Shown here: piece after piece, positions 22,652 to 60,092 of the stretch
How the letters are laid out: every line of letters begins with the position of its first letter
Numbering within the stretch: position 1 is the stretch's first letter
Assembly (NCBI RefSeq): GCF_000469155.1
Contig: NZ_AWXE01000004.1
Location: 124,001-188,000, forward strand
Length of the DNA stretch: 64,000 nucleotides
From: Candidatus Micropelagos thuwalensis
GTDB lineage: Bacteria; Pseudomonadota; Alphaproteobacteria; RS24
Direction of reading: 5' to 3'
The notes under the pieces: generated by a model
The model's input: only the letters and a program-made list of their open reading frames with translations
Told to the model about the DNA's origin: nothing
Databases searched by the model: none
Position numbers and translations under genes: made by a program

Positions 22652-24181
22652 TCAGCCGAGATTAGAAATCTTCGCACGTCGTCTGCGTTCAGTAGATGAC
22701 GGAATTTTCAAAAGTTGACGATATTTTGCAACGGTGCGACGCGCCAGACTAACCCCCTGCTTACTGATAATCTCAGCAATAGCATCATCACTGAGTGGAT
22801 CGGATGGTGTTTCCTGATTAACCAATTCCTGAATTTTATTTCTTACGGCAGCCGCAGACGCATTTTCGGTAGAGTCCGACTGACTGTTTAGAGATACACT
22901 GAAAAATGATTTCAGCGGAAAGCACCCTATTGGTGTTTCAATCATAATGCCTGATGTGACACGGCTCACCGTACTTTCATGCATACTGACTGCCTTTGCC
23001 ACATCCCTTAGAAGGAGAGGTTTTAAATATGTCGGGCCTTTATCCAGAAAAGCGGTTTGTTGTTTGATAATCTCGGCACTGATAATCAGCGTGGTATTAT
23101 TACGCTGTTCCATTGCCCGTTTAAGCCACCGCGCAGAAGAAAGCGCATTTGCACTAAACTCTAGCGCTTCTTTCTCTTTGATTTTACGATTAAGTTCTTC
23201 AGCATATTTTTCGTCTATAACGATGCCTGGCAAGGTTGAACGATTAAGGTCTACAACCCAGTTGCCATCCTTTTTAAACACCACCAGATCCGGAGCGTGA
23301 ATAATTTCATTGCTATCATCAAACTTCATACCTGGTTTCGGATCAAAACTGCGAACCGTGTCAAGCATGTCACGCAAGTCGGTTTCTGTGCATTTACATT
23401 TACGTTGCAATATATCCAGTTTGCCATGCGCCAGCAATTCCAGATGATTTAAAAAAACTTCAAATTGAGGAGTTATTTTTTGCTGCTCAAGAGCCTGCAA
23501 ACGCAAACATTCCTTGAGGTCGCGAGCAAAAATACCGGTTGGCTCAAGAGACTGAAGATTCTGCAAAATTGGCATTAAATCATCAATATCAAGACCTTTT
23601 TCCTCAGCAATATCTTCAAGGGGCTTTCCAAGCCATCCGCTAGGCTCAATATAGCTGGCCAGCACATAAGCAAGAATTTTTTGAGTTTCGGACATCTGGG
23701 AAAGCTCAATTTGCTTCTCAACATGAGCCACAAGCGAAATAGCACGTTCAGAGATCCGTGTCGAAATCATGTCCCAGTCATTTTCAGCTGCCTGAGACAT
23801 TGTGCTCATTTGCGAATTAAGACGCGACTCAAAATCAAACTCTGCACTTTCATACTGATTTGTCTCCTGAACATTCTCAGCAGTCGCCGGTGTTTTGTCT
23901 TCCACCATAGCCGTGCCATCCTGTATGGCTCTGTCTAGCCCTGTATCCGATGCTGCGCCGTTGAAGGCTTCAGCTTCCGACTCCTCTTGAATAGAAGGTA
24001 ATGTGTCATTATTGGTGTCAGCCTGTTGAACTTCCATAAACGGATTTTCAAGAGCTTCGGTTTCAAGATAGGTTTGCAAATCAAGATTGTTCATTTGCAA
24101 CATACGGATGGCCTGTTGCAAACGCGGTGTCATTACCATTGACTGCTTTTGCTTGAGCCGTAAAGACTGTGATAACTGCAT
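22652..24181 (-). CDS. rpoN: RNA polymerase sigma-54 factor RpoN
   Basis: A 509-residue sigma-54. Region I starts MQLSQSLRLKQKQSMVMTPRLQQAI, typical of the Gln-rich activator-interacting segment. An acidic region II follows, then the core-binding domain, an HTH with SMHESTVSRV, and the RpoN box ARRTVAKYR at residues 480-488, which contacts the -24 element. ATG at 24181 is chosen because GGGGAAG precedes it; the frame opens at a TTG five codons earlier. With eight GG-N10-GC promoters in this window and two activators at 42600 and 44007, this is probably the sigma factor for the flagellar locus. Confidence 0.97.
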   Translation of the reverse strand: MQLSQSLRLKQKQSMVMTPRLQQAIRMLQMNNLDLQTYLETEALENPFMEVQQADTNNDTLPSIQEESEAEAFNGAASDTGLDRAIQDGTAMVEDKTPATAENVQETNQYESAEFDFESRLNSQMSTMSQAAENDWDMISTRISERAISLVAHVEKQIELSQMSETQKILAYVLASYIEPSGWLGKPLEDIAEEKGLDIDDLMPILQNLQSLEPTGIFARDLKECLRLQALEQQKITPQFEVFLNHLELLAHGKLDILQRKCKCTETDLRDMLDTVRSFDPKPGMKFDDSNEIIHAPDLVVFKKDGNWVVDLNRSTLPGIVIDEKYAEELNRKIKEKEALEFSANALSSARWLKRAMEQRNNTTLIISAEIIKQQTAFLDKGPTYLKPLLLRDVAKAVSMHESTVSRVTSGIMIETPIGCFPLKSFFSVSLNSQSDSTENASAAAVRNKIQELVNQETPSDPLSDDAIAEIISKQGVSLARRTVAKYRQLLKIPSSTERRRRAKISNLG

Positions 24182-24398
24182 AACTTCCCCAATCAACTTA
24201 ACGCTACTTAACGCGGTGTATGCGGCTAAATCTCACAGCTTCACATGTGAATGCAAAAAAACAATTTGACGGGGTCAGGCGTCAGCAAAACGACAAAAAA
24301 ATATAATATTTACAATATCTTAACTTTTTCCTGACATTCTTAAAATTTGTCATGTCAAAATCCGGACAGGCATTTTGGTCATTTAACGCTTTTCCATC

Positions 24399-24457: not shown

Positions 24458-24688
24458 ATGAGTGAACCGGAAAAACAGCCCTGTCGTAGGTGTTTCGTTA
24501 TCAGGTTTTTTATCTTGGGTGTTGTGATGCTCGCCCTGATTGGCTTACTTGGGGGCGATAAACTTGTCTATCTGCGCCATATCACACCAGAACTTGTTGC
24601 CACCATTATTATGATTGGCGGTATGCTGGGTTTTATCGGCAAGCTCATTCTCTGGCGGTTTTTCCCCGAAGATGAGGAAAATCTCTAA
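24458..24688 (+). CDS. Small two-helix membrane protein under a sigma-54 promoter
   Basis: A 76-residue protein with a Cys-containing N-terminus (KQPCRRCFVIRF), two transmembrane helices (about 18-36 and 46-68) and an acidic tail ending EDEENL. I do not recognise the family. It is a single-gene unit with a near-consensus sigma-54 promoter, divergent from rpoN and convergent with the DUF1566 gene. Coregulation with the flagellum is the simplest reading; a role in motility or in the envelope is only inference. Confidence 0.75.
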   Translation: MSEPEKQPCRRCFVIRFFILGVVMLALIGLLGGDKLVYLRHITPELVATIIMIGGMLGFIGKLILWRFFPEDEENL

Positions 24689-24697
24689 AGCCATTTC

Positions 24698-25237
24698 TCA
24701 TAGGCGGTCGCGAACCAATCTGACAGCCATTTCTTGTGTTGGGAAAAATCGACCATAACTGTGACCTGTGAAAAAATTCACAGTCCATTGATGGCGGGGC
24801 GCAAGGCGGTTGGGATCAGATGTCCAGTAAGGGCCACCAAACGTATCCGGGAAAATTTCTTCATTAATTTTCAAACCCGGACAAGTTTCACAAACAAGGG
24901 AAGAAAGTTCTTCTTTGGTCGGCAAACGCCATCCCGCCCCAAGTTGGTCATTCGCCTGTGCAATGGCCTGATCCGCTGTCTCAACCGAGATCTGCAGAAT
25001 CTCACCAATGCAATTTTCACCATTCCAGCGTTGGCCGATACTGCAACGCAACCATTCAATGCCAATCTCAAGATCAATGACCATCTGACCACGTGTCATA
25101 AACCTTGAAGTGTCATCCTCAGCATACATATCTGAAAAAGGAGAAAAAACAAGAACAGATAAAAAGCAGATGTACGGATAAGCACGCTTTTGTTTAAACA
25201 CGTGAAAAAGCTTATTTAACCGGACTATTTGCAACAT
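24698..25237 (-). CDS. Exported DUF1566 domain protein
   Basis: A 179-residue protein with an N-terminal hydrophobic export segment (about residues 20-38, preceded by KQKRAYPY) and a DUF1566/Lcl-C-type domain: GIEWLRCSIGQRWNGENC, then AGWRLPTKEELSSLV, then the terminal PYWTSD and RLVRDRL. DUF1566 proteins are widespread secreted or surface proteins of unknown role. Five Cys suggest disulfides in the periplasm. The ATG at 25237 is preferred over the GTG one codon before it. Confidence 0.75.
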   Translation of the reverse strand: MLQIVRLNKLFHVFKQKRAYPYICFLSVLVFSPFSDMYAEDDTSRFMTRGQMVIDLEIGIEWLRCSIGQRWNGENCIGEILQISVETADQAIAQANDQLGAGWRLPTKEELSSLVCETCPGLKINEEIFPDTFGGPYWTSDPNRLAPRHQWTVNFFTGHSYGRFFPTQEMAVRLVRDRL

Positions 25238-25357
25238 CACTTACTTACCTGTCACGCCTTTAGGCAATCAACTTGGTTATCATTATATGTTAAATCGCAA
25301 AAAAATGAGATAAATATTAAACTTCAAGTAACAAATATTTCGTAAATCTGTTTAGAT

Positions 25358-25409: not shown

Positions 25410-26171
25410 ATGGATATCGCCTCGTTAATTGGTTTCTTAGGTGCCGTAGGCATGATTATTGGTGCAATGATCTCCGGCGGCGGGGTCGGGCCATTTATTG
25501 ACATCCCCTCAATTCTTATCGTTTTTGGTGGGACATTCTTTTCCGTTATGTACACAACACCGCTACCGACTTTCCTTGGCAGTTTCGGTGCAATGGCAAA
25601 AGCTTTTATGCCACCTGTAAAAAAGCAGGAAGATGTGATAACGCGCATGATTGAGTTGGCTTCGATTGCTCGTAAGGATGGCATGATGGCGTTAGAAGGT
25701 CAGGAAGTGCCGGACAAGTTTTTTGAAAAAGGCCTACAAATGCTCGTGGATGGTGCTGATGAAACCAAACTGACCCAGCAGCTCAATCAGGAAATCAAGT
25801 CCATGAAAATGCGTCACCAGACCAATCAAGACGTAGTGAAAGCATGGATTGATATCGGCCCTGCGATGGGCATGATCGGGACGCTTATCGGCCTGGTGCT
25901 TATGCTCGGTAATATGGCCGATCCAAAGGCGATTGGTCCGGCGATGGCGGTTGCTCTTTTGACAACCATGTATGGCGCGATTATTGCCAACATTATCTTT
26001 TTGCCCATGCTGACCAAGCTTGAAGGCTATACGACCTATGAAACTGTTTATCGTGAAATGGTTCTCCTTGGCTTGAAATATATCTCCCGTGGCGAGTCCC
26101 CGCGTAATATTCAAGATCAAATGCTGGCAAATCTGCCACCGAAACTTCAAGAGCAACTTGAAGCTGCTTAG
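25410..26171 (+). CDS. motA: Flagellar motor stator protein MotA (PomA type)
   Basis: A 253-residue stator subunit with four transmembrane helices (near 5-25, 30-48, 150-172 and 180-200) and a cytoplasmic loop between helices 2 and 3 carrying charged residues that engage FliG. IDIGPAMGMIGTLIGLVLML and LLTTMYGAIIANIIFLPM hold the conserved prolines of the ion path. Length and sequence style fit PomA/MotA of polar sodium- or proton-driven motors. It is cotranscribed with motB 36 bases downstream, from a sigma-54 promoter. Confidence 0.95.
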   Translation: MDIASLIGFLGAVGMIIGAMISGGGVGPFIDIPSILIVFGGTFFSVMYTTPLPTFLGSFGAMAKAFMPPVKKQEDVITRMIELASIARKDGMMALEGQEVPDKFFEKGLQMLVDGADETKLTQQLNQEIKSMKMRHQTNQDVVKAWIDIGPAMGMIGTLIGLVLMLGNMADPKAIGPAMAVALLTTMYGAIIANIIFLPMLTKLEGYTTYETVYREMVLLGLKYISRGESPRNIQDQMLANLPPKLQEQLEAA

Positions 26172-26207: not shown

Positions 26208-27395
26208 ATGGTCGCTAAGGAACAGGAAGAAGAAAAGGTTGAAGAAACCGAAGAGGAGGAATGCCCCAAATGTCCTCCCGTCGGTGCGCCTGCATGGATG
26301 GCTACATTTGCTGACATGGCAACACTGCTCATGGCGTTTTTTGTTCTTATTCTTTCTTTCGCAGAATTTAACGTCCCTAAATTTAAACAAATCTCCGGTT
26401 CACTGAAAAATGCATTCGGTGTTCAGCGCATCACACCTGTTGTTGAGCCGCCCATGGGCACAACTATTCTATCTTTGAATTTTAGCCCCTCCCCGTCTCC
26501 ATCAGTCACTAATAATATGACCCAGCAGACGACGCAGGTTAATCAACCCAAACTTGAGCAACAAAATAAAACCAAGGATGACGATTTTTCAGAACAATCA
26601 AAAAGTGATGACGCCGAAGACTCTTCAAAAAATCAAAGCGCTGAAGATATTGTGAAAGCACTTGAGGATGCAATTGCTAGAGGCGAGATACAAGTTGAAA
26701 CACTTGGTGAAAAAGTTGTCGTCAATTTCACCCCTAAAGAGTCACAAGAACAAGACCTACCTCAATTATTGAGTCAGACACTTGATGCAATTGAAAAAGT
26801 TCAGTCTGCTGCTGGTAAGTCTGAGTCGGATGTTGTTTTTGGTGGTCTTGAGGAGCAACTTGCCAAGCTTGTTGACACCATGGAAGCCATGCAAAAGCAA
26901 CAAAACAAACAAGATGCTGGTCAAGGTTCACCTGAACAACAAAATGAACGCGCCGAAATTGCTGAAGATACACTCAAAGTAGCTCTTAAGCAGGAAATAG
27001 GTCAAGGGTTGGTTACTGTAGACCGCGAGGATGACCGCGTTATCGTTACAGTTGGTTCGGGTGGTGCGTTTGCTTCAGGTTCTGCAAGACTGACCGTAAA
27101 AGCTCGAGAGATTATGAATCAAATTGCTGAAGTTAATAAAGAAGGTACAAGCCGCATTAACGTCTCAGGGCATACAGACAATATGCCGCTAGTATTCGGT
27201 TCGCAATACAGAGACAATTGGGATCTTGCAGCTGCGCGTGCCTCGAGTGTCGTTCAAGAGTTACAAAGCACAGGCAAAATTGAAGGCGATCGATTACAAG
27301 CTATGAGCTTTGGTGAGGAGCGCCCTGTAGACTCAAATGACACGGCTCAAGGGCGTCGAAAGAACAGACGCATAGAGATTGAGATTAATTACTAA
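26208..27395 (+). CDS. motB: Flagellar motor stator protein MotB (PomB-like) with long Gln/Glu-rich linker
   Basis: A 395-residue protein with an acidic N-terminus (EQEEEKVEETEEEE), then a single membrane helix APAWMATFADMATLLMAFF with the ion-binding Asp at D36. A long hydrophilic Gln/Ser/Glu-rich linker (about residues 95-270) follows, and a C-terminal OmpA-type peptidoglycan-binding domain (about 275-395) with NVSGHTDNMP and RRKNRRIEIEI. Usual MotB/PomB proteins are about 250-320 residues, so the linker is some 80-100 residues longer than normal. Sodium versus proton use cannot be decided from this alone. Confidence 0.94.
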   Translation: MVAKEQEEEKVEETEEEECPKCPPVGAPAWMATFADMATLLMAFFVLILSFAEFNVPKFKQISGSLKNAFGVQRITPVVEPPMGTTILSLNFSPSPSPSVTNNMTQQTTQVNQPKLEQQNKTKDDDFSEQSKSDDAEDSSKNQSAEDIVKALEDAIARGEIQVETLGEKVVVNFTPKESQEQDLPQLLSQTLDAIEKVQSAAGKSESDVVFGGLEEQLAKLVDTMEAMQKQQNKQDAGQGSPEQQNERAEIAEDTLKVALKQEIGQGLVTVDREDDRVIVTVGSGGAFASGSARLTVKAREIMNQIAEVNKEGTSRINVSGHTDNMPLVFGSQYRDNWDLAAARASSVVQELQSTGKIEGDRLQAMSFGEERPVDSNDTAQGRRKNRRIEIEINY

Positions 27396-27405
27396 GATTA
27401 ATTTA

Positions 27406-28209
27406 TCAGGTATTTTCGTTTGTTAACATGTCTTCGGGGTCTGGCATGGGCTCAGGAGGCGGAACATGACTGAAAGCAAACTTGCAATATGGATCCAGCT
27501 TTCGGCAAAGCATTTGCGCTTCCTGAATTGTCCGAGCCGCAACCACAATCCACATTTGTTTCTCTTGGAACTGTGCATAGCTCCTCATGACATGTATTTG
27601 CCCGCGATTAAAATAAAAAGCTGACAACAAATATGTGAGCGCAAACATAGCCAAGCTGACACCATAGCTGATAAAATAAGCCAACGATATTGCCATTAAC
27701 GGCTCCCATAACCTGTTTTGGATCAACCATAGAGGTGGGAAAGTTCCAGCAAGAGGTGTCGGAGTAGTATCATATATTGTGCAATTTCGGCGAATATCTC
27801 TTAGAACTTCAAAATTTCTATAATCAGATTTTTTGTGAATAGTATGTCCATCAAACGCTGAACGAATTTCTTCAAACTTCTCGACTTCCATAAACTCAAG
27901 CGAGCATCTTAAAGCGCCCTCCACAAGAACTTCAAAGAAAAATCCCTCACGAAAGACAGTAAGCAAGCTATACTGATTATCTTCCTTATCGAGAGCAGTT
28001 TCAAAGTCTTCGGCATTACCGAAAAAAAACTCTCCTTCAAGGCAAACAATCACATCGCCTGGCTTTAGACGGTAGCTGGTAGCTACTGATCGCATGCCAA
28101 GACTGGCAATACGCAAAAAGGTTTTGGCCACAGGTCCAGCTGCATCCCCTTGATTATTTAATGGGGCTTGAGTATTTTCTGAAATGTCATCAGATAAATG
28201 ATCTGACAT
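27406..28209 (-). CDS. PDZ-like N-terminus plus membrane helices, last gene of the flhB operon
   Basis: A 267-residue protein of unknown function. Residues 30-100 contain RLKPGDVIVCLEGEFFFGN and LLTVFREGFFFEVLVEG, which read like a PDZ-type domain. Two close hydrophobic helices follow near 165-200, then a soluble tail ending in a Pro-rich acidic segment. The frame opens at GTG 28221; I prefer ATG 28209. It lies a few bases behind the coiled-coil gene and ends eleven bases from the convergent motB stop. Its place at the end of a fliOPQR-flhB transcription unit suggests a flagellar or polar role. Confidence 0.7.
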   Translation of the reverse strand: MSDHLSDDISENTQAPLNNQGDAAGPVAKTFLRIASLGMRSVATSYRLKPGDVIVCLEGEFFFGNAEDFETALDKEDNQYSLLTVFREGFFFEVLVEGALRCSLEFMEVEKFEEIRSAFDGHTIHKKSDYRNFEVLRDIRRNCTIYDTTPTPLAGTFPPLWLIQNRLWEPLMAISLAYFISYGVSLAMFALTYLLSAFYFNRGQIHVMRSYAQFQEKQMWIVVAARTIQEAQMLCRKLDPYCKFAFSHVPPPEPMPDPEDMLTNENT

Positions 28210-28224
28210 AAACACCACCACTTA

Positions 28225-28956
28225 TTAAGGATACTGAATCTGTCTGGAAGACAGGCGAACCTCTTTTAGTAGTTTAGAGTTACTGTCAGCCAATTCGATT
28301 AATTTTTTATTAATATTCTGCTGTAATAACAAGACTTCTTGTAAAGATTTAATCACAGGGTCGTTATTAGCGCCTTTTTTGGATTTACTGCTATTCAAAA
28401 CAACTTTCTCAATGGACTTAGAAGACCTTTCTTGAGCAATACGTAGCGTCTTAAGAGCAGACTCCAGTTCTTTTTGAACTTTGATCTGGGTTTGAAGAAT
28501 GCTTTGGGCATTTGTTGTAATGAGCGCGTCGAGGGCTTCACGGGATTTCTTGTCTTCATCTGAAAGATTTTGAATGGCAACCATCATCTCCTTATTGGCA
28601 TTGATAATTTCTACCTGACGGTCAAATACACCCTTAGCCTCGGTAATAGTCTTATTAATACTCTCAACATTTTCAGCAAAAACAACAAGCGCTTGACGGT
28701 TTGTTTTTGACAAGGTTTCTAGTTCAGATACTGAACCGAAATACAAAAACAATGACATGCCGAAGGCGCTAATTGCACTGAAAATAGCAAAAATAGCAAT
28801 AATCCAGGAGTTCTTATAAAATCTGGAAACTCGATTTACGAGTTCGAGATTTTGAGTTTTAACCTTATTAAATTCAGCGGTAACATCGGCAGCTGCATCG
28901 GCAGCATCGAGAGCCAGTTTAACCCCTTCTTGAACTAATTTAAGCTTGTTACTCAT
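28225..28956 (-). CDS. Membrane-anchored coiled-coil protein in the flhB operon
   Basis: A 243-residue protein with a helical N-terminal part (VQEGVKLALDAADAAADV), one transmembrane segment near residues 50-74 (NSWIIAIFAIFSAISAFGM), and then about 160 residues of heptad-rich helix (ETLSKTNRQALVVFAENVESI onward). The shape resembles chemoreceptor-like or scaffold coiled coils, but no HAMP or signalling tip is visible. ATGA overlap with the gene before it. Unknown family. Confidence 0.72.
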   Translation of the reverse strand: MSNKLKLVQEGVKLALDAADAAADVTAEFNKVKTQNLELVNRVSRFYKNSWIIAIFAIFSAISAFGMSLFLYFGSVSELETLSKTNRQALVVFAENVESINKTITEAKGVFDRQVEIINANKEMMVAIQNLSDEDKKSREALDALITTNAQSILQTQIKVQKELESALKTLRIAQERSSKSIEKVVLNSSKSKKGANNDPVIKSLQEVLLLQQNINKKLIELADSNSKLLKEVRLSSRQIQYP

Positions 28957-29174
28957 GCAAATCTACCTTTACTTCGTACATTGGCGGTTTTGTTGACTGA
29001 AAATCTACTCTGAAAACTTGCACATTTCATGCCACTTGTCGATAAAACCACACGAGCAGGTAAAATGCCTGATTTAAAACCAAATTTCCGGCATCCCCAT
29101 CGTCTATTTTTATCATGGGTGACGAACAAATGACGACACTGAAAGCAGCTCTTATCGGCTTCAATTTCTGTCAT
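28953..29174 (-). CDS. Small Cys-motif protein in the flhB operon
   Basis: A 73-residue protein with SCFQCRHLF, then WGCRKFGFKS and MKCASFQ: four Cys in the order CxxC-C-C, likely to bind zinc. I have seen the pattern C-x-x-C-R-H ... C-R-x-x-G-F-K-S ... C in small conserved proteins that databases sometimes label loosely; no activity is established. It starts with ATGA across the previous stop and is coupled to the next gene the same way. Confidence 0.68.
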   Translation of the reverse strand: MTEIEADKSCFQCRHLFVTHDKNRRWGCRKFGFKSGILPARVVLSTSGMKCASFQSRFSVNKTANVRSKGRFA

Positions 29175-29392
29175 TTTCTTAACCGCTCTAGCCTGTCGTA
29201 AACTTTCGCAATCGGATATCGAATGCTACCGGCAAAACAAAGTCCGCCAGCCATCCAAACACCAATGGCAGAAATGAGACGCCCATCATCCTTCAATTCA
29301 AAGCCGGCAAGAAAGAGATATAGTGACATACCCAAAAAGGCGGCTGTGCTAACCATATCACCCAGGCTCGAATGTTGGCGGCGTTTGGTCAT
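29171..29392 (-). CDS. Small two-helix membrane protein directly behind flhB
   Basis: A 73-residue protein with a basic start MTKRRQHSS, two hydrophobic helices (about 13-30 and 39-58) and a basic tail DRLERLRK. Its ATG overlaps the flhB stop (ATGA) and its own stop overlaps the next start, so it is the first link between the export genes and the unknown tail of the operon. No family is recognised. Confidence 0.65.
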   Translation of the reverse strand: MTKRRQHSSLGDMVSTAAFLGMSLYLFLAGFELKDDGRLISAIGVWMAGGLCFAGSIRYPIAKVYDRLERLRK

Positions 29393-30552
29393 AATCTATC
29401 CTCACTCAACAACTTACCAAATTCATTGAACTGCATATCTTCTGGCACATCGACATCAGGTAATTGCAGGGTTTCCCCCTTCTCAAGCCGGTAAAGGTAG
29501 GCCAGAACAACCGCGACAGCATTATACAAACTTTGTGAAATCTCTGCACCAATATCACCGGTAAAATAAAGCGCTCTTGCTAGAATAGGACTGCGGAAAA
29601 CACTGACTTGGGCTGTTTCGGCACGCTCAATAATTTGTTGCGCTATAATACCGCGGCCCATAGCCAGAATAATTGGGGCTGCTTGATCACCCACCTCATA
29701 TTTAAGGGCTACAGCAAAATGTGTCGGGTTGGTAATCACCGCAGTCGCATCGGCAACATCATCCAGCGCTTCTCTTTGACGGGCACTACGGCTTGCAGTT
29801 TCGGACTGCAGGCGTCTAATTTTAGCCTTTACCTCTGGTGAGCCTTCCGTTTGCTTAAATTCATCCTTCAAATCCTGACGTGACATTCGCAGTTGTTTGA
29901 TGTGCGTATGGCGTTGCCAGAAATAATCTATGACAGCAATAATAGCCAACACCACAAGTAGAGCCCCAATAAGCAATGGAATAACATAGCGCATGACCTC
30001 AAGCATTCGGGTTAGCGTTAAAGACGGGAAATTGATCACTCCAGGCATAATTTGAAGAATAATGGCCGTTGCAATACCAAATAACAAAACAACTTTCAGA
30101 ATTGATTTACCCAATTCTACTAAAGCTTTCATGGAGAACATTCGCTTGAGGCCGGAAATAGGATTAATTCTGTTACCCTTGAATTTCATTGCTTTGGGCG
30201 CGAAGTTTAATCCACCCACGGCTGCTTGGGTCAATAAATTAACAATTACAATCGGCACACCGACAAGCAGAGCAGATTGAAATAACAGCCAGAGACTATC
30301 CATCAATTTGTTGTTAATCAAATCGTCCAGATTATCAATTGAACCCAATCTGAACAGTGTTGACCAATTTGAAAGCCCGGCCCCGCCGTAGCTTAAAGTT
30401 ACCAACATTACCAGCAATCCTATTGAGATATTAGCAAACACAAAAACCTCTTTAGAGGTCAAAATCTGACCGTCCTCCTTAGCCTTATCTATCCGCCGCT
30501 GGGTCGGTTCCTCAGTTTTCTCCTGGGCATCATCTGAATTATTTTCAGCCAT
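29389..30552 (-). CDS. flhB: Flagellar export switch protein FlhB
   Basis: A 387-residue FlhB. The N-terminus NSDDAQEKTEEPTQRRIDKAKEDGQ is the family hallmark. Four membrane helices follow, then the cytoplasmic domain with the self-cleavage site TNPTHFAVALKYE (cut between Asn and Pro), which switches export from hook to filament substrates. Slightly longer at the C-terminus than most. It overlaps fliR by eight bases. flhA, which often follows flhB, is absent here; four small unknown genes take its place. Confidence 0.97.
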   Translation of the reverse strand: MAENNSDDAQEKTEEPTQRRIDKAKEDGQILTSKEVFVFANISIGLLVMLVTLSYGGAGLSNWSTLFRLGSIDNLDDLINNKLMDSLWLLFQSALLVGVPIVIVNLLTQAAVGGLNFAPKAMKFKGNRINPISGLKRMFSMKALVELGKSILKVVLLFGIATAIILQIMPGVINFPSLTLTRMLEVMRYVIPLLIGALLVVLAIIAVIDYFWQRHTHIKQLRMSRQDLKDEFKQTEGSPEVKAKIRRLQSETASRSARQREALDDVADATAVITNPTHFAVALKYEVGDQAAPIILAMGRGIIAQQIIERAETAQVSVFRSPILARALYFTGDIGAEISQSLYNAVAVVLAYLYRLEKGETLQLPDVDVPEDMQFNEFGKLLSEDRL

Positions 30553-42599: not shown

Positions 42600-43778
42600 C
42601 TAACCAACTTCTGAAAGTCTGGTATCTTGACTGACCCGTGATTGAATTGTGTTGGACAGGATATCGGTCAGGATATCAGATTTAGTAATACAACCGTTTT
42701 CATTTATGACTAGCGCGCGTTGGAGAACGTTTTCCAATTCGCGAACATTTCCTGGCCATTCATATTCTGTGAGAGCTTTTACAGCACTTTCGTCTAGCCA
42801 AGGTAATTCCTCAGCCGTTTTACAGTGGCGTTGCAAAAGAACAGTGCTGATTGGAATAATATCATCTGCTCTTTCACAAAGACCTATGGTGTTCAATGGA
42901 AACACATTTAAACGATAGAAAAGATCCTCACGGAAATTACCCGCACGAACTTCCTCAGGAATATCGCGGTTAGTTGTTGCCAACACACGAACATCTACCG
43001 CAACATCTTCATTTGATCCTATTGGGGTGACCGATTTTTCCTGTAAAGCTCGTAAAAGCTTTGCCTGTAAAGAAAGAGGCATCTCAGAAATTTCATCTAA
43101 TAACAATGTTCCTGTATCAGCAGCACGGAAAATACCTTTATTCGCTGTAGACGCCCCAGTAAAAGCTCCTTTTTCATGACCAAATAGAATAGCTTCCAGC
43201 ATATTTTCAGGAATAGCCGCGCAATTGATTGCGATAAACGGGTTTGCACTGCGGCTTGAATGATTATGAACAAAGCGGGCAAGAACCTCCTTACCGGTTC
43301 CTGTAGGACCATTAATAAATACGGTCACATCAGTTTCAGCGACCTTCTTAGCAAGTCGCAGCATAGTGAGGGAACTATCATCTCCTACGGCGACATGGTT
43401 TTCAGAAGCAATCATGCTGACTAAAATTTGCAAACCGTAGTTTCTAGCTGGAATGTTATCGAGATTGCTTTTAGGCAAAGAAACTTGGACCAATTTTCCT
43501 CCAAGTTCTGTATTTACCGAAAAAATTTCTGCTTTCTCTTCAACGACAGTTATGTTTTTGATTTTTAAACCTCGGCATATTTCTACAAATTTATCGAGAC
43601 CACCAATGGCATCTAAATATTTACTAGAGCAGACTAGATGCTCACAAGAAGAAAGCTCTTCAGGTAAATCAGTATTTTTGGCTTCAAATTCTAAAAACGT
43701 TATATTACGTGTGGCTAAAACTTCGCTAATCGGTTGCGCCAATTTGAAGCCAAAAGAATTGATTGCTAAGAGAGTCAT
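42600..43778 (-). CDS. Sigma-54 activator without DNA-binding domain (FleT-like), first gene of the fliE-N operon
   Basis: A 392-residue protein with a divergent N-terminal domain of about 130 residues, then a complete AAA+ sigma-54 activator domain: Walker A GPTGTGKEVLARF, GAFTGA, Walker B GTLLLDEISEMPL and sensor segments [12 protein letters not shown]. It stops soon after the AAA+ domain (ILTDILSNTIQSRVSQ...), with no Fis-type HTH. In C. sphaeroides the activator FleT likewise lacks an HTH and works with FleQ, and lies in an operon with fliE; this gene has both properties. ATG 43778 is chosen because AGGAGAT precedes it and the sigma-54 promoter overlaps the upstream open frame. Confidence 0.88.
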   Translation of the reverse strand: MTLLAINSFGFKLAQPISEVLATRNITFLEFEAKNTDLPEELSSCEHLVCSSKYLDAIGGLDKFVEICRGLKIKNITVVEEKAEIFSVNTELGGKLVQVSLPKSNLDNIPARNYGLQILVSMIASENHVAVGDDSSLTMLRLAKKVAETDVTVFINGPTGTGKEVLARFVHNHSSRSANPFIAINCAAIPENMLEAILFGHEKGAFTGASTANKGIFRAADTGTLLLDEISEMPLSLQAKLLRALQEKSVTPIGSNEDVAVDVRVLATTNRDIPEEVRAGNFREDLFYRLNVFPLNTIGLCERADDIIPISTVLLQRHCKTAEELPWLDESAVKALTEYEWPGNVRELENVLQRALVINENGCITKSDILTDILSNTIQSRVSQDTRLSEVG

Positions 43779-43809
43779 TTGGATCTCCTTTCCCTCTGGC
43801 ATGGGTAAA

Positions 43810-43825
43810 GGCAAAAATCGCGCCA
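43810..43825 (-). promoter_or_regulatory. Sigma-54 promoter of the FleT-like gene and fliE-N operon
   Basis: On the minus strand: TGGCGCGATTTTTGCC, with GG and GC ten bases apart and a consensus TTGC. It lies about 33 bases before ATG 43778. An activator gene driven by its own kind of sigma factor implies a cascade or autoregulation. Confidence 0.75.
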
Positions 43826-44006
43826 AACTGGTAACTGCTGTAAAAAAAAATTAAATATTGTTATTCTTCAATGCCTTAGGTAGTTAGACAAAACTTTTAG
43901 CATGCTTTTTCTGGACGAAAGTTCAATTTTCTGACACATTCTATGATATTTAGGATCTGAGTGTCGTCAGTTTGACACCTCTTTGATTACAGGTTTGATT
44001 AAAATT

Positions 44007-45095
44007 ATGGCGGAATCGACGAGCGTAGATGAATTTATTGTTGGTCAGTCCGCTGCAACTAAAGAACTTCGTCGTCTCGTAGACATTCTTGCCCCAGCAG
44101 ATAGTACAGTGCTCATTCAGGGACAAACTGGATCAGGCAAGGATGTGGTTGCAAGGGCTATCCATGCCCTTTCTGGTCGAAAAGGACCACTTATCTCCAT
44201 AAATTGTGCGGCTATTCCTACTGAATTATTGGAATCGGAGCTGTTTGGGCATGAAAAAGGGGCATTTACAGGTGCAGAAACGGACCGAAAGGGACGCTTT
44301 GAATTGGCTGATGAAGGTACATTATTCTTGGATGAAATTGGCGACATGAACTTGTCGCTTCAAACAAAACTTCTTCGCGCAATTGAAAACCGAACCATTC
44401 AAAGAGTTGGTGGAAGTAAAGATATTGAAGTTAATTTTAGGCTTATTTGCGCGACCCATCAAAACCTACAAGCTCATGTAGATGAAGGAAAGTTTCGCGC
44501 TGATTTGTTCTTCAGAATTAATGTTTTTCCCGTACAAGTACCTTCACTTGCAGAGAGAAGCGTAGATATTCCCGATTTAATTGACACCATTTGTGCATCT
44601 ATTAGTGAAAGTCAAAATAGTAAACCTCCGCTTTTTGATGAGACAGCATTATCGGAATTATCACGATATAATTGGCCAGGTAATGTTCGTGAACTTAGAA
44701 ATGTTCTTGAACGTGCTATTGTGCTTTTCCCACAAAAAGAAATTACGAGCAAAGAAGTGCGTGAAAACTTGCTGCGCCTCAAAGTTCCAGACGAAAATGA
44801 AGAATTAGAAGCCCTATGGGAAGAAACTGGCAATCTGAATAGTATTGATCTTGACGGATTAATCTCAGACAAACCACCGTTACCTGTCCCCTCCAGCTAC
44901 CAAGACTGGTTTTCCTATTTTGATACAATTGACTTAAGGAAGCATCTGCAGGAGGTAGAGATTGTTTTGATTGAAGCTGCACTCAGAAAAAAAGAAGGGC
45001 AAATTACCGGTGCTGCAGAAGCATTAAAACTACGCCGAACAACGCTTATCGAAAAAATGAAAAAGCTGATGATAGAAAGGCCAAATGCAAACTAG
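44007..45095 (+). CDS. Sigma-54-dependent activator with Fis HTH but no receiver domain (FleQ-like)
   Basis: A 362-residue enhancer-binding protein that starts directly at the AAA+ domain: [16 protein letters not shown], Walker [21 protein letters not shown], Walker [14 protein letters not shown] and [16 protein letters not shown]. The C-terminus carries a Fis-type HTH ([24 protein letters not shown]). No N-terminal receiver or FleQ-type c-di-GMP domain is present. It is divergent from the FleT-like gene and has no sigma-54 box of its own in the 228-bp gap, so it is probably the upstream regulator. ATG 44007 is preferred to TTG 43983. Confidence 0.88.
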
Positions 45096-55820: not shown

Positions 55821-58800
55821 TTAAATAACATCCAATAATGAGTTAAACATTTCACGCGCAGTAGATAATATTCTTGCTGAGGCCTGATAAGCCTGTTGAA
55901 ATTCCATAAGGGATGCGGCTTCTTCATCTAGGTTTACCCCAGAATAAGATAGCTCGCCCTCTATTGCAGCATCGCGCATACCTTCAGCAGCATTTTTAGT
56001 AATTTCAGATGACCGAACAGAGGAGCCCACACTGGTGACAATCTCAGAGAATATATCTTTGAAACTTCCAGAGTTTGAATTGATAAGATTCTTCTCCTGC
56101 AATCTAATAATTGCATCAATATTCCTTGCATCACCAATGCCTTCGGCATTACTTTCCAAGAAAAATAAATCTCCAAACTCTGGTTCACCCGAAAAATTAA
56201 TTTCATAACCTGCTGCAATTGCCTGCCCTTGTCTGTTTAGAACGCGGGAAGCAATTGAGTGCCCTGTGGATGTATCAAGTATTTCAATGCTCTGCCCATC
56301 TTCGCTTGTCACTTCAACACTAAGGGGTTCAAAATCATCTAATGGAGGTGCTAAATCATATGAAGCTGAGATACTCCTAGCACCCGCTCCATTGATGATC
56401 ACTATTAAGTCTTCATTAGGAAGATTACTCATAGTCATTGATTTTTCGGCAATGCTTGTCGCATTTGCTGTCATTTCAACCATATTGCCAAGACTTGAGG
56501 TGACTTGAATTTTATCAGCTAGGAGTTTCAGACCATATTCTGATACTGGAAAACCAAAACTCTTAAGTGAATTATTTGTTGGAAAATTTATAGGACCAGT
56601 TGCAAGAGTGTGTTCTAAAGTTAATCGTCCAGTAGTGCCAGATGTAATATTAAAGGAAGCAGAAAACCCTGTGGTGCTTGGTGTGTGTGAAATAGACCCA
56701 TCTGCTGCCAAATTAACTGCTATTGTTACTCCGTTAAAGTCAACATTAAAACTTCCATTATTTGTTGCAGCGTTAATTGGTTGGCCTGTAAATTTTGTAG
56801 TAGCGACCGCAAGATTTGAAATACCAAAACGACCAGCTGCCGTCGAATTCCCTGTAACAGTGCTATCGGAGACTAAAGTAATGGCTGATGCTTGGAGTGA
56901 ACCACCACCAATAATGTTGAGGTGATTATTACTATCATAAAATGCTAAAACCCTACCAGTCTCTCCACCAATAACATCAATCTCACCTTCATTCATAACT
57001 AGAGTGTATTGATCTCCGTCAAATTCAATAACCACTTTGTCACCAGTTTCGGGTCTTGATGAAACAGCAACTGCAGTATTATTTGACAAAGAAATAGAGG
57101 TGCCTTGTGAGCGTATGTCTTTAATTAGGGCTTCAGCCACTGTTTTTGAATTTAGAGTGGCTAATTGTGAAGAATTTACACTTGCAGAATATTGTTGACT
57201 GTTTGCCTCTGATGGAAGTGTTAATGAATACGTTGCGGAAGCAGCAAATGCGCGTTTATCTGTTCCGCCAAAATTACTATCGACCTCATCATTAGCTAGA
57301 AAAGTAAAAGTCTTAACATCGCCATAATTTGAACTCTCAACTTCAACTAATCCGCCATTCATTGGTGAACTTGTAGAGTTTGATGTTACTCCATTGACTG
57401 TAAGAGAAAAATCTTCAGATGAATCTATCAGGACCTCACCTGTAAATCGACCAGCATCAACTGTGCCATTAGCATTACTAGAATTAAAGCTTAATAAAGA
57501 TGAAATGGCTTTCCCTGCATCATGTGATGGGAAAGAGGATATGACCTGCCCATCAAACATTGGACTCGTATCTGACAGAGAAGACACCATAATGTCGTTA
57601 CCGTCCTCACTAATCAGAGTTATTGCATCATTATTATTATTCGCCTGGGCTATTACTCCCGTTAAATTACTGATATTATTAATTGCATCTACCAGATTTG
57701 AAACATTTGTAGGTGACACACTTGCAGAGACTGATAGTGGCTCTTGATTTTCAGACTCTAGGTTAAATGAAACAGTACCTGTTGAATTAAAATTATTTAG
57801 ACGTACAACAGTCTTAGATTTTGCAACTAATCCAAAGTCATTGAATGTTTCATTAATTTTGTTTGAAACGAAACCAGCTGACGCGCCCGCTGGAATGGAT
57901 AATGAGGGTGTCGCACCATTAGAAATGCTTGCAGAAATTGAGTAGCTGCTGGTAGGGCTATCAGGTAAGGCTCCATATCCAGCAATAGCGTCAGAACTTG
58001 CTCCAAATGGCCCAAGTCGAATAGTTTCCAAACCATCAACATTAGAAATGTTCAAATCCATACCACGATAGGCGTTTGTCTCCTGATTGAGGTAAGAACC
58101 GTAATATTTAGCATTTGCGCTGAAACCGTTTTCTTCGCTCAAAAAATTAACAATTTCAGTTTCAGACATAGGCGATCCGGCTATATGCCTACCTTCACGT
58201 GTAAATATTTGAATATCTGAGGCGTCCTGCCTATTCGTCACAGACCCACTGATTGTTTTAGAGGAAGTGGTAATGCTGGCAGAAGTAAATGATGCACTTG
58301 ATGAAGCAATGTTTAAGCTTGAGCTAGTACTACTTGGAAATAATCCTAAATCACCCAAACTAAATCCGGTGTCGCTGGTAACAACCCCTGCAGCTAAAGC
58401 TTTTTGAAACTCAGCTTCATCTGTCCAATTGTCTGTTGCACTTGCATTTGAAAACAGCCCACCATAACCAAGGGCAAAATTATGTGTGCCGGCATTAGCA
58501 CCATCCGCTAAAACAATTTGTAAATTATTAGCATCAACTAAGTCATCTAGGGTTAAGACAATATTAACATTTGGTTGTTGTATGTAAGAATTAATAGAGA
58601 AATTTTGAGCACCTGCGGGAATAGATGCAACTACACCATCTCTCAAGAATTCTGTGGCACTAATAGGAATATTACCATTCTCAAAAATGGTGTCCACACT
58701 AGGGGGCTGAGCAAAAACTGCTGGTTCAGTTTTATTAATTTCCATAACAGCATCGCTATTATTGAGACTGTTCTGCGTAACAATTGTGGGAGATGCTGCG

Positions 58801-60092
58801 GCTAACTCTTGAGGTTTTTTTAACAAAAAACTCATATTTTTTGCCGCACCACTAACATTATCAAGGGTTATAGTGTCACCATTCTCTGGCGATCCAAAAA
58901 TTTTAAAGTCAAAACCATCTGCAGAAATCCTGTTAGATGATGTTGAGAGGCCATTGAAGTTAATTTCTGAATTTGTAACCCAAGTTTGCTTTTCTTCGTT
59001 AAAAACGAATTCAACAGAATTAGGCGGGATTAAATCAACATTATCTATATTTAATTCTGCAGAAAGACTGCCTCTGTTTGTTCGACCAAATCCAAATTCT
59101 AAATCTGAAAGTGTAAACATTTTGCCACCGGCTTTACCATCAAGAGTAATGCCATTTTCATGAACATTATTTACTTCCCGAGAAAATAAATAAGCCAATG
59201 TGTTAATCTGTTTCTCTATTTCCCCAATAAATTCATATGACAAAGTAAAACCTGCAAGAGATCCTTTTGTAATTTGACTTGTAGGTGTAATTGAACCCGC
59301 AGAAATAAGTGCAGGCTGGATAGCACCTTGATTTTCTATGATACCCAACTTTCTAGATGTCGCCCCTTCAACAAGCTTAGGTCCGGCAATAGTTCCACCT
59401 AAAATTATTGATGCAACGCCTCTTTGATCATAGGTCACAGTCAATTCTACACGTTCTGATATTTCTGATATCAGCTTATCTCTATTGTCTAGAACAGAAT
59501 TTGGAACTTGCCCGCTTTGTCCAGATGACAATAATCTTTGGTTTACTTTTACAAGTTCATTTACAAGAAGATTTACTGTCTCTGCGGTTTCTTCAGCTTG
59601 TGCTTTGGCATCAAATTTTAAACCTTCAACTGTGCTTGCAGTTTGTCTAAAAGCTCCAGCAAGACTAAGCCCTTCTTCAATTGCAACTAATCTGCCAGGA
59701 ATATCTCCTGGGGCGGTTGCAACTTCCATTAATGCGCCGAAGAAGTTTCCCATAAAATTCCCAAGATCAGAGTCACTGGGTAAAAGAAAATTTTCTAAAT
59801 CACGTACATTTTCATAAAATACATTTGATTTCTCAAAGTCTGCTTTTGTGGAGTAGACACGGTTAGTCATAAATTCATTAAATGATCGACGGATTTCAGA
59901 AACTCGAGCACCTAACCCCACTTGACTAGCAACAGCGGTGAGTCCGCCTTGACTGGCAGATATTTCTTCTATACTGGCCTCACGTCTGTGATAGCCTTCA
60001 GTATTAATATTTGCGATATTCTGACCAGTCACCGTCAGAGCCTGACGATAGGCTTGAACACCACTTTTACCAATATCAAATAGGCTGGCCAT
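55821..60092 (-). CDS. flgK: Giant flagellar hook-associated protein FlgK (1423 residues)
   Basis: The N-terminus (FDIGKSGVQAYRQALTVTGQNIANINTEGYHRR, VGLGARVSEIRRSFNEFMTNRVYS) and the C-terminus (ASLMEFQQAYQASARILSTAREMFNSLLDVI) are ordinary FlgK. The usual length is about 450-650 residues, so some 800 extra residues are inserted between the D1 parts. The insert is Ser/Asn/Thr-rich, beta-prone and contains IN-type units (VSNLVDAINNISNLTGVIAQ) and several repeated SIPAG-type motifs. One frame runs unbroken for 4.3 kb. It lies four bases behind flgJ; RBS GAGG. The insert probably forms a large outward domain at the hook tip. Confidence 0.95.
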   Translation of the reverse strand: MASLFDIGKSGVQAYRQALTVTGQNIANINTEGYHRREASIEEISASQGGLTAVASQVGLGARVSEIRRSFNEFMTNRVYSTKADFEKSNVFYENVRDLENFLLPSDSDLGNFMGNFFGALMEVATAPGDIPGRLVAIEEGLSLAGAFRQTASTVEGLKFDAKAQAEETAETVNLLVNELVKVNQRLLSSGQSGQVPNSVLDNRDKLISEISERVELTVTYDQRGVASIILGGTIAGPKLVEGATSRKLGIIENQGAIQPALISAGSITPTSQITKGSLAGFTLSYEFIGEIEKQINTLAYLFSREVNNVHENGITLDGKAGGKMFTLSDLEFGFGRTNRGSLSAELNIDNVDLIPPNSVEFVFNEEKQTWVTNSEINFNGLSTSSNRISADGFDFKIFGSPENGDTITLDNVSGAAKNMSFLLKKPQELAAASPTIVTQNSLNNSDAVMEINKTEPAVFAQPPSVDTIFENGNIPISATEFLRDGVVASIPAGAQNFSINSYIQQPNVNIVLTLDDLVDANNLQIVLADGANAGTHNFALGYGGLFSNASATDNWTDEAEFQKALAAGVVTSDTGFSLGDLGLFPSSTSSSLNIASSSASFTSASITTSSKTISGSVTNRQDASDIQIFTREGRHIAGSPMSETEIVNFLSEENGFSANAKYYGSYLNQETNAYRGMDLNISNVDGLETIRLGPFGASSDAIAGYGALPDSPTSSYSISASISNGATPSLSIPAGASAGFVSNKINETFNDFGLVAKSKTVVRLNNFNSTGTVSFNLESENQEPLSVSASVSPTNVSNLVDAINNISNLTGVIAQANNNNDAITLISEDGNDIMVSSLSDTSPMFDGQVISSFPSHDAGKAISSLLSFNSSNANGTVDAGRFTGEVLIDSSEDFSLTVNGVTSNSTSSPMNGGLVEVESSNYGDVKTFTFLANDEVDSNFGGTDKRAFAASATYSLTLPSEANSQQYSASVNSSQLATLNSKTVAEALIKDIRSQGTSISLSNNTAVAVSSRPETGDKVVIEFDGDQYTLVMNEGEIDVIGGETGRVLAFYDSNNHLNIIGGGSLQASAITLVSDSTVTGNSTAAGRFGISNLAVATTKFTGQPINAATNNGSFNVDFNGVTIAVNLAADGSISHTPSTTGFSASFNITSGTTGRLTLEHTLATGPINFPTNNSLKSFGFPVSEYGLKLLADKIQVTSSLGNMVEMTANATSIAEKSMTMSNLPNEDLIVIINGAGARSISASYDLAPPLDDFEPLSVEVTSEDGQSIEILDTSTGHSIASRVLNRQGQAIAAGYEINFSGEPEFGDLFFLESNAEGIGDARNIDAIIRLQEKNLINSNSGSFKDIFSEIVTSVGSSVRSSEITKNAAEGMRDAAIEGELSYSGVNLDEEAASLMEFQQAYQASARILSTAREMFNSLLDVI

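What the first reader, a model, noticed from the sequence alone, without database searches (positions are those of the whole stretch)
27406..29392. Four unknown, translationally coupled genes fused to the end of the fliOPQR-flhB operon
ATGA overlaps or very short gaps join flhB to a two-helix protein, a four-Cys protein, a membrane coiled-coil protein and a PDZ-like membrane protein. flhA, flhF and fleN, which follow flhB in many polar systems, are not there. Tight coupling to export genes suggests a flagellar, polar-positioning or motor accessory module without a described role.
Basis: partly seen in the sequence, partly recalled or inferred. Interest (0 to 1): 0.55.

Follow-up and report, generated by a model that had tools for sequence, protein, structure and literature searches.

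The report
Unknown four-gene flagellar accessory block
Four small uncharacterised genes sit together directly behind a flagellum-building gene in two groups of ocean bacteria; as a set they were found only beside that one type of flagellum and are missing where it is missing, so they probably make an undescribed membrane part of the swimming motor.

Summary
Behind flhB, minus strand, lie A (73 aa, membrane hairpin), B (73 aa, four invariant Cys), C (243 aa, one membrane span plus coiled coil) and D (271 aa, PDZ domain plus membrane hairpin). Three ATGA overlaps join flhB-A-B-C; D follows after 3-15 nt and ends 10 bp from the convergent motB. The genome is of the PS1-clade genus of IMCC14465. 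The block recurs in PS1, SAR116 and two further alphaproteobacterial families, D down to 24% identity, directly behind one distinct FlhB type. The marker gene and FlhB share the same genomes: 10 of 28 (PS1 family, marker D) and 75 of 101 (SAR116 order, marker B). Ten of the next eleven FlhB loci were fetched and lack it. flhA, flhF and fleN are not missing; they lie about 44 kb away, which weakens a polar-placement reading. D has a real PDZ fold. C has a near-invariant cytoplasmic helix, nearly constant length and a conserved end ([IV]-x-[YF]-P in 37 of 38). I read the block as a lineage-specific inner-membrane accessory complex of the motor or basal body. The flagellar link is well supported; the exact role is inferred. 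B relatives elsewhere are common and mostly unlinked to flagella.

The parts
29389..30552 (-). flhB, end of the fliLMNOPQR-flhB run
   Evidence: Pfam Bac_export_2, 1.3e-102
29171..29392 (-). gene A, 73 aa, predicted membrane hairpin, both ends cytoplasmic by charge
   Evidence: ATGA overlap with flhB; two hydrophobic stretches above threshold in the window protein and in L011, one in L024 and L007; more K+R at the ends than in the loop in 36 of 36 sequences; no Pfam or NCBIfam family above cut-off
28953..29174 (-). gene B, 73 aa, no membrane span, four invariant Cys (10, 13, 28, 51)
   Evidence: ATGA overlap with A; all four Cys fully conserved in 38 sequences; no Pfam or NCBIfam hit; relatives in 81 other genomes of the 378 of the phylum sample
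28225..28956 (-). gene C, 243 aa, bitopic membrane protein, coiled coil predicted on the periplasmic side
   Evidence: ATGA overlap with B; one span at aa 52-70; more K+R on the N-terminal flank in 38 of 38; periodicity 3.46, reached by 0 of 200 shuffles
28873..28932 (-). C: near-invariant amphipathic helix on the cytoplasmic side, aa 9-28
   Evidence: highest conservation of the protein, 0.93 and 0.89 of maximum for columns 11-20 and 21-30 of 38 sequences
28747..28803 (-). C: membrane span, aa 52-70
   Evidence: hydropathy
28228..28239 (-). C: conserved carboxyl tail IQYP, aa 240-243
   Evidence: [IV]-x-[YF]-P at the end in 37 of 38 distinct sequences; tails of A, D and FlhB vary
27406..28221 (-). 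gene D, 271 aa (267 from the ATG at 28209), PDZ domain plus membrane hairpin
27874..28131 (-). D: PDZ domain, about model residues 27-112
   Evidence: AlphaFold2 model, pLDDT 76-90 by blocks of ten over residues 31-110; RseP PDZ2 (3id4) Z 8.7, 2.2 A over 77 residues
27598..27708 (-). D: short membrane hairpin, about residues 168-204, DUF2628-like
   Evidence: model helices 168-184 and 186-214; hydropathy alone shows one stretch in the window protein; DUF2628 matched at E <= 1 by 11 of 11 members, best 8.2e-4, below cut-off in the window protein; no K or R in the hairpin turn in 23 of 23
26208..27395 (+). motB, convergent with D (context)
   Evidence: MotB_plug and OmpA; convergent within 1.6 kb of D in 17 of 21 distinct loci with at least 1.5 kb of room
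25410..26171 (+). motA (context)
   Evidence: MotA_ExbB 3.9e-28

Best explanation
A-B-C-D encode a lineage-specific accessory complex of the inner membrane that belongs to one distinct type of alphaproteobacterial flagellum (PS1, SAR116 and two further families). Shown: the four genes in one order directly behind flhB of that type in every inspected locus not cut by a contig end, and marker genes present and absent together with FlhB. Inferred: C is the structural element. Its near-invariant N-terminal helix docks on the cytoplasmic face, its coiled coil of nearly fixed length projects into the periplasm, and its conserved carboxyl tail docks at the far end. D is a membrane-anchored PDZ adaptor on the cytoplasmic side that gathers partners by their peptide tails. 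A is a membrane hairpin and B a small metal- or disulfide-stabilised subunit, made in step with C through coupled translation. The most likely job is a scaffold around the basal body that holds or organises stator or motor parts. An assembly role at the export gate is the main alternative.
For: PS1 family: D and FlhB mark the same 10 of 28 genomes; 18 lack both, 11 of them at least 90% complete. SAR116 order: B and FlhB mark the same 75 of 101 genomes, with B 215-421 bp past the FlhB match on the same strand in 76 of 77 B places, the 77th being a weak stray in G371. Class sample of 289: FlhB in 172, and the seven best FlhB matches (294.5-825 bits, next 228) are exactly the seven genomes with a true B. 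All four genes stand behind flhB in 19 of the 20 best-scoring SAR116 loci, the other cut by a contig end, and in 6 of 6 longer ones, three of which are genomes already among the 20; also in the distant G130. PDZ in D; ends and length of C conserved; topology by charge. motB converges on D in 17 of 21 distinct loci.
Against: Joint absence in draft genomes is inflated because flhB and the block share a contig; the cleanest cases are few (G320, one contig, and G008, three contigs). Only B (SAR116) or D (PS1) was the marker; A and C were not searched genome-wide in those sets. No interaction, localisation or phenotype was tested. By charge, the PDZ of D faces the cytoplasm and the tail of C the periplasm, so the tempting contact of C tail and D PDZ does not fit the predicted topology. 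In G130 the tail of C differs, B and C are 43 nt apart and motB is not beside D; three SAR116 loci (L026, L105, L106) also lack motB beside D. Relatives of B outside the class lie mostly away from flagellar genes. The second half of the C coil has no significant periodicity on its own, 34 of 200 shuffles.
Confidence: 0.5

Rival explanations
1. An assembly or export accessory: A-D help insert or stabilise the FliPQR-FlhB export gate or regulate FlhB, as FliO and other dedicated assembly factors do, and are not part of the finished motor.
For: Translational coupling to flhB itself and position at the end of the fliOPQR-flhB run; overlaps within flhB-A-B-C recur in most distant relatives looked at, for example L024 and L011, though not all: a gap of some tens of nt follows flhB in L026 and 43 nt separate B and C in G130.
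Against: A FliO-like gene is already present (named by sequence and place). A coiled coil of nearly constant length on the periplasmic side with a conserved end is more than an assembly factor at the gate would seem to need (inference).
Confidence: 0.27
2. A polar positioning or cell-pole landmark module that places the flagellum.
For: Membrane, PDZ and coiled-coil parts are usual in landmark systems (recalled); the block stands where many polar systems carry flhA-flhF-fleN (recalled).
Against: flhA, flhF and fleN are present together elsewhere in this genome, although flhF is divergent (SRP54 24.1 bits against a cut-off of 22.7).
Confidence: 0.13
3. Passenger genes: an envelope operon unrelated to motility, kept behind flhB by inheritance of the whole cluster only.
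For: B relatives outside the class are mostly unlinked to flagella: one flagellar neighbourhood in 20 inspected of 81. The block evolves faster than FlhB.
Against: The order is held while D diverges to 24% identity; absence goes with absence of FlhB, also in a one-contig genome, G320; among true D matches in 289 genomes (seven) and 398 genomes (the own one only), none lies away from flhB except G135, where the contig ends at D.
Confidence: 0.07

Closest known systems
PflC/PflD medial-disk proteins of the Campylobacter jejuni motor (PMC12222027; passages seen by term search)
   Same: Lineage-specific flagellar accessory proteins, one of them with PDZ-like domains, added to the core motor.
   Different: PflC is periplasmic with a protease-like domain and two PDZ-like domains. 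D has one PDZ and a membrane hairpin, no protease domain in its model, and by charge lies on the cytoplasmic side.
CP1-CP4 of the Rhodobacterales fla1 cluster (PMC11974857, preprint; section 9 and passages seen)
   Same: Four uncharacterised genes of an alphaproteobacterial flagellar cluster, reported as essential for motility from transposon mutants.
   Different: They are spread out (CP2, CP3 and CP4 near motA, CP1 elsewhere), not a run behind flhB. In 289 unnamed alphaproteobacteria no true D or B match was seen outside this flagellar type. The CP sequences were not at hand for direct comparison.
PDZ domains of RseP and DegP/DegQ (PDB)
   Same: Fold of D, about residues 27-112.
   Different: No protease part in D.
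DUF2628 (PF10947)
   Same: Weak resemblance of the membrane part of D, matched at E <= 1 by 11 of 11 members.
   Different: Below the family cut-off in the window protein (13.4 against 23 bits).
Unnamed four-Cys small proteins of other Pseudomonadota classes
   Same: Same profile as B, in 81 genomes beyond the own one of 378.
   Different: No A, C, D or FlhB found nearby in 20 inspected, and flagellar neighbours in only 1 of those 20.

Membership tests
PDZ domain (for D) | PDZ fold | tested here: met
   Model m262132ea9da7 residues 29-106 against RseP PDZ2 (3id4): Z 8.7, rmsd 2.2 over 77; profile against DegQ 6z05 E 3.1e-6; Pfam PDZ_6 matched at E <= 1 by 7 of 11 members, best 0.011
PDZ domain (for D) | binding of a carboxyl-terminal peptide | not testable with these tools
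   no complex prediction offered
DUF2628 (for D) | Pfam gathering score 23 bits | tested here: not met
   13.4 bits for the window protein; other members' bit scores were not shown (best E 8.2e-4)
[quoted passage not shown]
   D has one PDZ and then a membrane hairpin; K and R lie on the outer flanks, none in the hairpin turn, in 23 of 23
Rhodobacterales CP1-CP4 | sequence homology | tested here: inconclusive
   CP sequences not at hand; true D and B matches limited to this flagellar type in 289 unnamed alphaproteobacteria; no true C in 27 other FlhB-bearing ones, one weak coiled-coil match (G063) set aside; A not searched
FlhA-FlhF-FleN polar placement genes | FHIPEP, SRP54-type GTPase or ParA domains in the block | tested here: not met
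   No such domain in A-D; the genes themselves lie at L099 12737-16966
Four-Cys small protein family (for B) | profile match and conserved Cys | tested here: met
   81 further genomes at E <= 1e-4; four Cys fully conserved in the flagellar set of 38
Flagellar-system companion | present and absent with the flagellar genes | tested here: met
   same 10 of 28 (marker D) and same 75 of 101 genomes (marker B); FlhB stands for the flagellar genes; shared contigs inflate joint absence in drafts

The most novel reading that the evidence does not exclude
A-D build a new envelope-spanning scaffold of the flagellar motor. C is a stalk of nearly fixed length whose cytoplasmic helix grips the C-ring or export gate and whose [IV]-x-[YF]-P carboxyl tail docks at the far end of the periplasm, or, if the predicted topology is wrong, into the PDZ domain of D. 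D is a membrane-anchored PDZ adaptor of the motor on the cytoplasmic side, unlike the periplasmic PDZ protein PflC of Campylobacter.
Probability: 0.3. Interest if true: 0.66.

Novelty: new variant of a known kind. Interest (0 to 1): 0.5.

Why it matters
SAR116 and PS1 are widespread marine bacterioplankton (recalled), and I found no description of their flagellar parts beyond the core genes in the papers I could search. The block gives four candidates that are genetically linked to one flagellar type. It adds a case of lineage-specific motor additions, with an unusual PDZ-membrane hairpin protein and a coiled-coil protein that carries a strikingly conserved tail, which makes concrete binding tests possible.

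Tried and rejected
Pfam and NCBIfam gave no family above cut-off for the window's A-D. Weak coiled-coil hits for C (HpHbR, apolipoprotein A-IV, FlgK_D1 and others) were taken as composition. B and C member scans gave nothing convincing.

The structure of B failed (pLDDT 46), so its fold is not claimed; the best sequence match to a solved structure was E 0.67.

PDZ ligand idea: the tail of C looks like a ligand for the PDZ of D, but predicted topologies put them on opposite sides, so it is kept only in the novel case. The tail of B is not uniform.

Rows dropped before counts. G016, G022, G023 and three class genomes, G030, G038, G040 (weak partial matches, E 6e-4 to 0.08); 31 of 38 genomes, partial matches at E 1.6e-6 to 0.009, most over the PDZ positions in longer frames, a few over the hairpin. 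G061, G220, G268 and G311 (E 0.0025-0.0047). G371 (E 7.7e-4, no FlhB); 19 of 20 genomes, matching PDZ positions only. G063 (E 0.0019, in a 2000-aa frame). L035 and L116 (PDZ-only matches) and repeat places of one genome or contig (L027, L031, L101, L107). and 83 left out the B relatives of L119-L157 from the flagellar set.

The idea that the block replaces flhF-fleN was dropped as first choice after finding flhA-flhF-fleN. Promoter- and terminator-like counts in the block were near those of shuffles (7 against 6.8; 6 against 3.7) and were not used.

Literature: searches listed no paper that, by title and start of abstract, deals with this block; several lists were capped (for example 8 of 145), and subscription journals are mostly not held.

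Full report
What is there. The window lies in an alphaproteobacterial genome of 1.96 Mb. Its genus also holds IMCC14465 and other PS1-clade records: contig lengths of G001 and G005 equal those of ALYF01000003.1 (IMCC14465) and QOQK01000003.1 (PS1 clade MED-G50). On the minus strand the run fliL-M-N-O-P-Q-R-flhB is followed by A, B, C and D. flhB/A, A/B and B/C overlap by ATGA; C and D are 3 nt apart (GTG) or 15 nt (ATG at 28209). motB and motA converge on D.

Conservation. flhB-A-B-C-D recurs in the PS1 genus, in a second genus of the same family (L007-L010), in a further family (L011/L064 and L062; L061 is cut by its contig end within C), in SAR116 (L023-L026, L059, L079-L106) and in the distant G130 (L060), with D at 83 to 24% identity to the window protein. 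A is hard to see by BLAST in far relatives but is found as a frame or by profile at the expected place. That G238 and its order are SAR116 is inferred: G348 contig 66 has the length of SHBD01000009.1, a SAR116 record. The overlaps within flhB-A-B-C recur in most relatives looked at, not in all. The D-motB convergence holds in 17 of 21 distinct loci with room. An Lcl_C-domain gene and rpoN lie beyond motA in many of them.

Companion of one flagellar type. In the PS1 family D and FlhB mark the same 10 of 28 genomes. In the SAR116 order B and FlhB mark the same 75 of 101 genomes; 76 of 77 B places lie 215-421 bp beyond the FlhB match on the same strand, the 77th being a weak stray in G371. In an even sample of 289 of the class, 172 have FlhB, and the seven best FlhB matches are exactly the seven genomes with a true B. 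D is truly matched in seven: six of those, and G135, whose contig ends at D; in G168 the contig ends before D. Ten of the next eleven FlhB loci by score were fetched and carry none of A-D, and no true C was seen in 27 other FlhB-bearing alphaproteobacteria tested. In the 398-genome phylum sample the own genome is the only full D match. Caveat: flhB and the block share a contig, so draft gaps remove both. The cleanest absences are G320 (one contig) and G008 (three contigs).

B is different. Its profile matches 81 other genomes of 378 in the phylum, none of them of this class. In 20 of those 81 inspected, no A, C, D or FlhB is near, and only one (G621, L142) has flagellar genes nearby. So B was probably recruited from a broader family of small four-Cys proteins (inference).

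The proteins. A: predicted membrane hairpin, K and R mostly at the ends in 36 of 36. B: four Cys fully conserved in 38 sequences; its model is too poor to use. C: one span, N-in by charge in 38 of 38; 237-249 residues, 24 of 38 exactly 245 (starts chosen by the nearest ATG). Conservation is highest in the cytoplasmic helix (aa 9-28), high again just past the membrane, low in the coiled coil, and high in the last residues, which are [IV]-x-[YF]-P in 37 of 38. These sequences are related, so the count overstates independent evidence. The stretch after the membrane shows 3.46-residue periodicity, reached by 0 of 200 shuffles; its second half alone is not significant, 34 of 200. D: model pLDDT 77, with a PDZ domain at about 27-112, a hairpin at about 168-204 and a small beta-alpha end. 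PDZ identity is backed by sequence (weakly) and fold. Charge puts both ends of D in the cytoplasm in 23 of 23.

How it most likely works. I commit to an inner-membrane accessory complex of the motor or basal body, with C as stalk and D as adaptor. The flagellar tie is shown by distribution and position; the complex, the contacts and the role are inferred. Export-gate assembly is the main rival. Polar placement is less likely because flhA, a divergent flhF, fleN and fliA lie together elsewhere. The attractive contact between the conserved tail of C and the PDZ of D conflicts with predicted topology and is therefore not my main claim.

Known relatives. PflC of Campylobacter shows that PDZ proteins can become motor parts, but it is periplasmic with a protease-like domain (PMC12222027, passages). 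CP1-CP4 of Rhodobacterales show that unknown genes of alphaproteobacterial flagellar clusters can be essential for motility (PMC11974857, section 9 and passages), but their arrangement differs and their sequences were not compared here. The listings showed no paper on this block.

Noticed in passing
L099 1929-5732 (G000 contig 4, just past the window end) and window 55821-60092: Very large hook-type proteins: a FlgE-like frame of 1267 aa and a FlgK-like frame of 1423 aa (named from sequence, no family scan). A FlgE-like frame of similar size is in G130 (L060 1340-5101).
   Followed up: no
window 24698-25240 (-) and 24458-24688 (+): A conserved Lcl_C-domain protein, probably exported, and a small two-helix protein weakly like DsbB (21.5 against a cut-off of 22.1 bits) lie between rpoN and motA; both keep this place in several SAR116 and PS1 loci and may belong to the same motor set.
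   Followed up: partly
L099 14945-16153: The flhF between flhA and fleN is divergent: it just passes the SRP54 cut-off (24.1 against 22.7 bits).
   Followed up: partly
L142 8110-8385 (G621): A B relative outside the class stands inside a flagellar cluster, between flagellin-like genes and fliF-fliG, without A, C or D.
   Followed up: partly
L138-L157: B belongs to an unnamed, widespread family of small four-Cys proteins in other Pseudomonadota classes; the two such relatives scanned have no Pfam match.
   Followed up: partly
window 42600-43826 (-) and 43983-45095 (+): Two sigma-54 activator-like genes stand side by side near fliF, with rpoN at 22652-24196 (named from sequence, no family scan), which suggests a sigma-54 flagellar hierarchy.
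   Followed up: no
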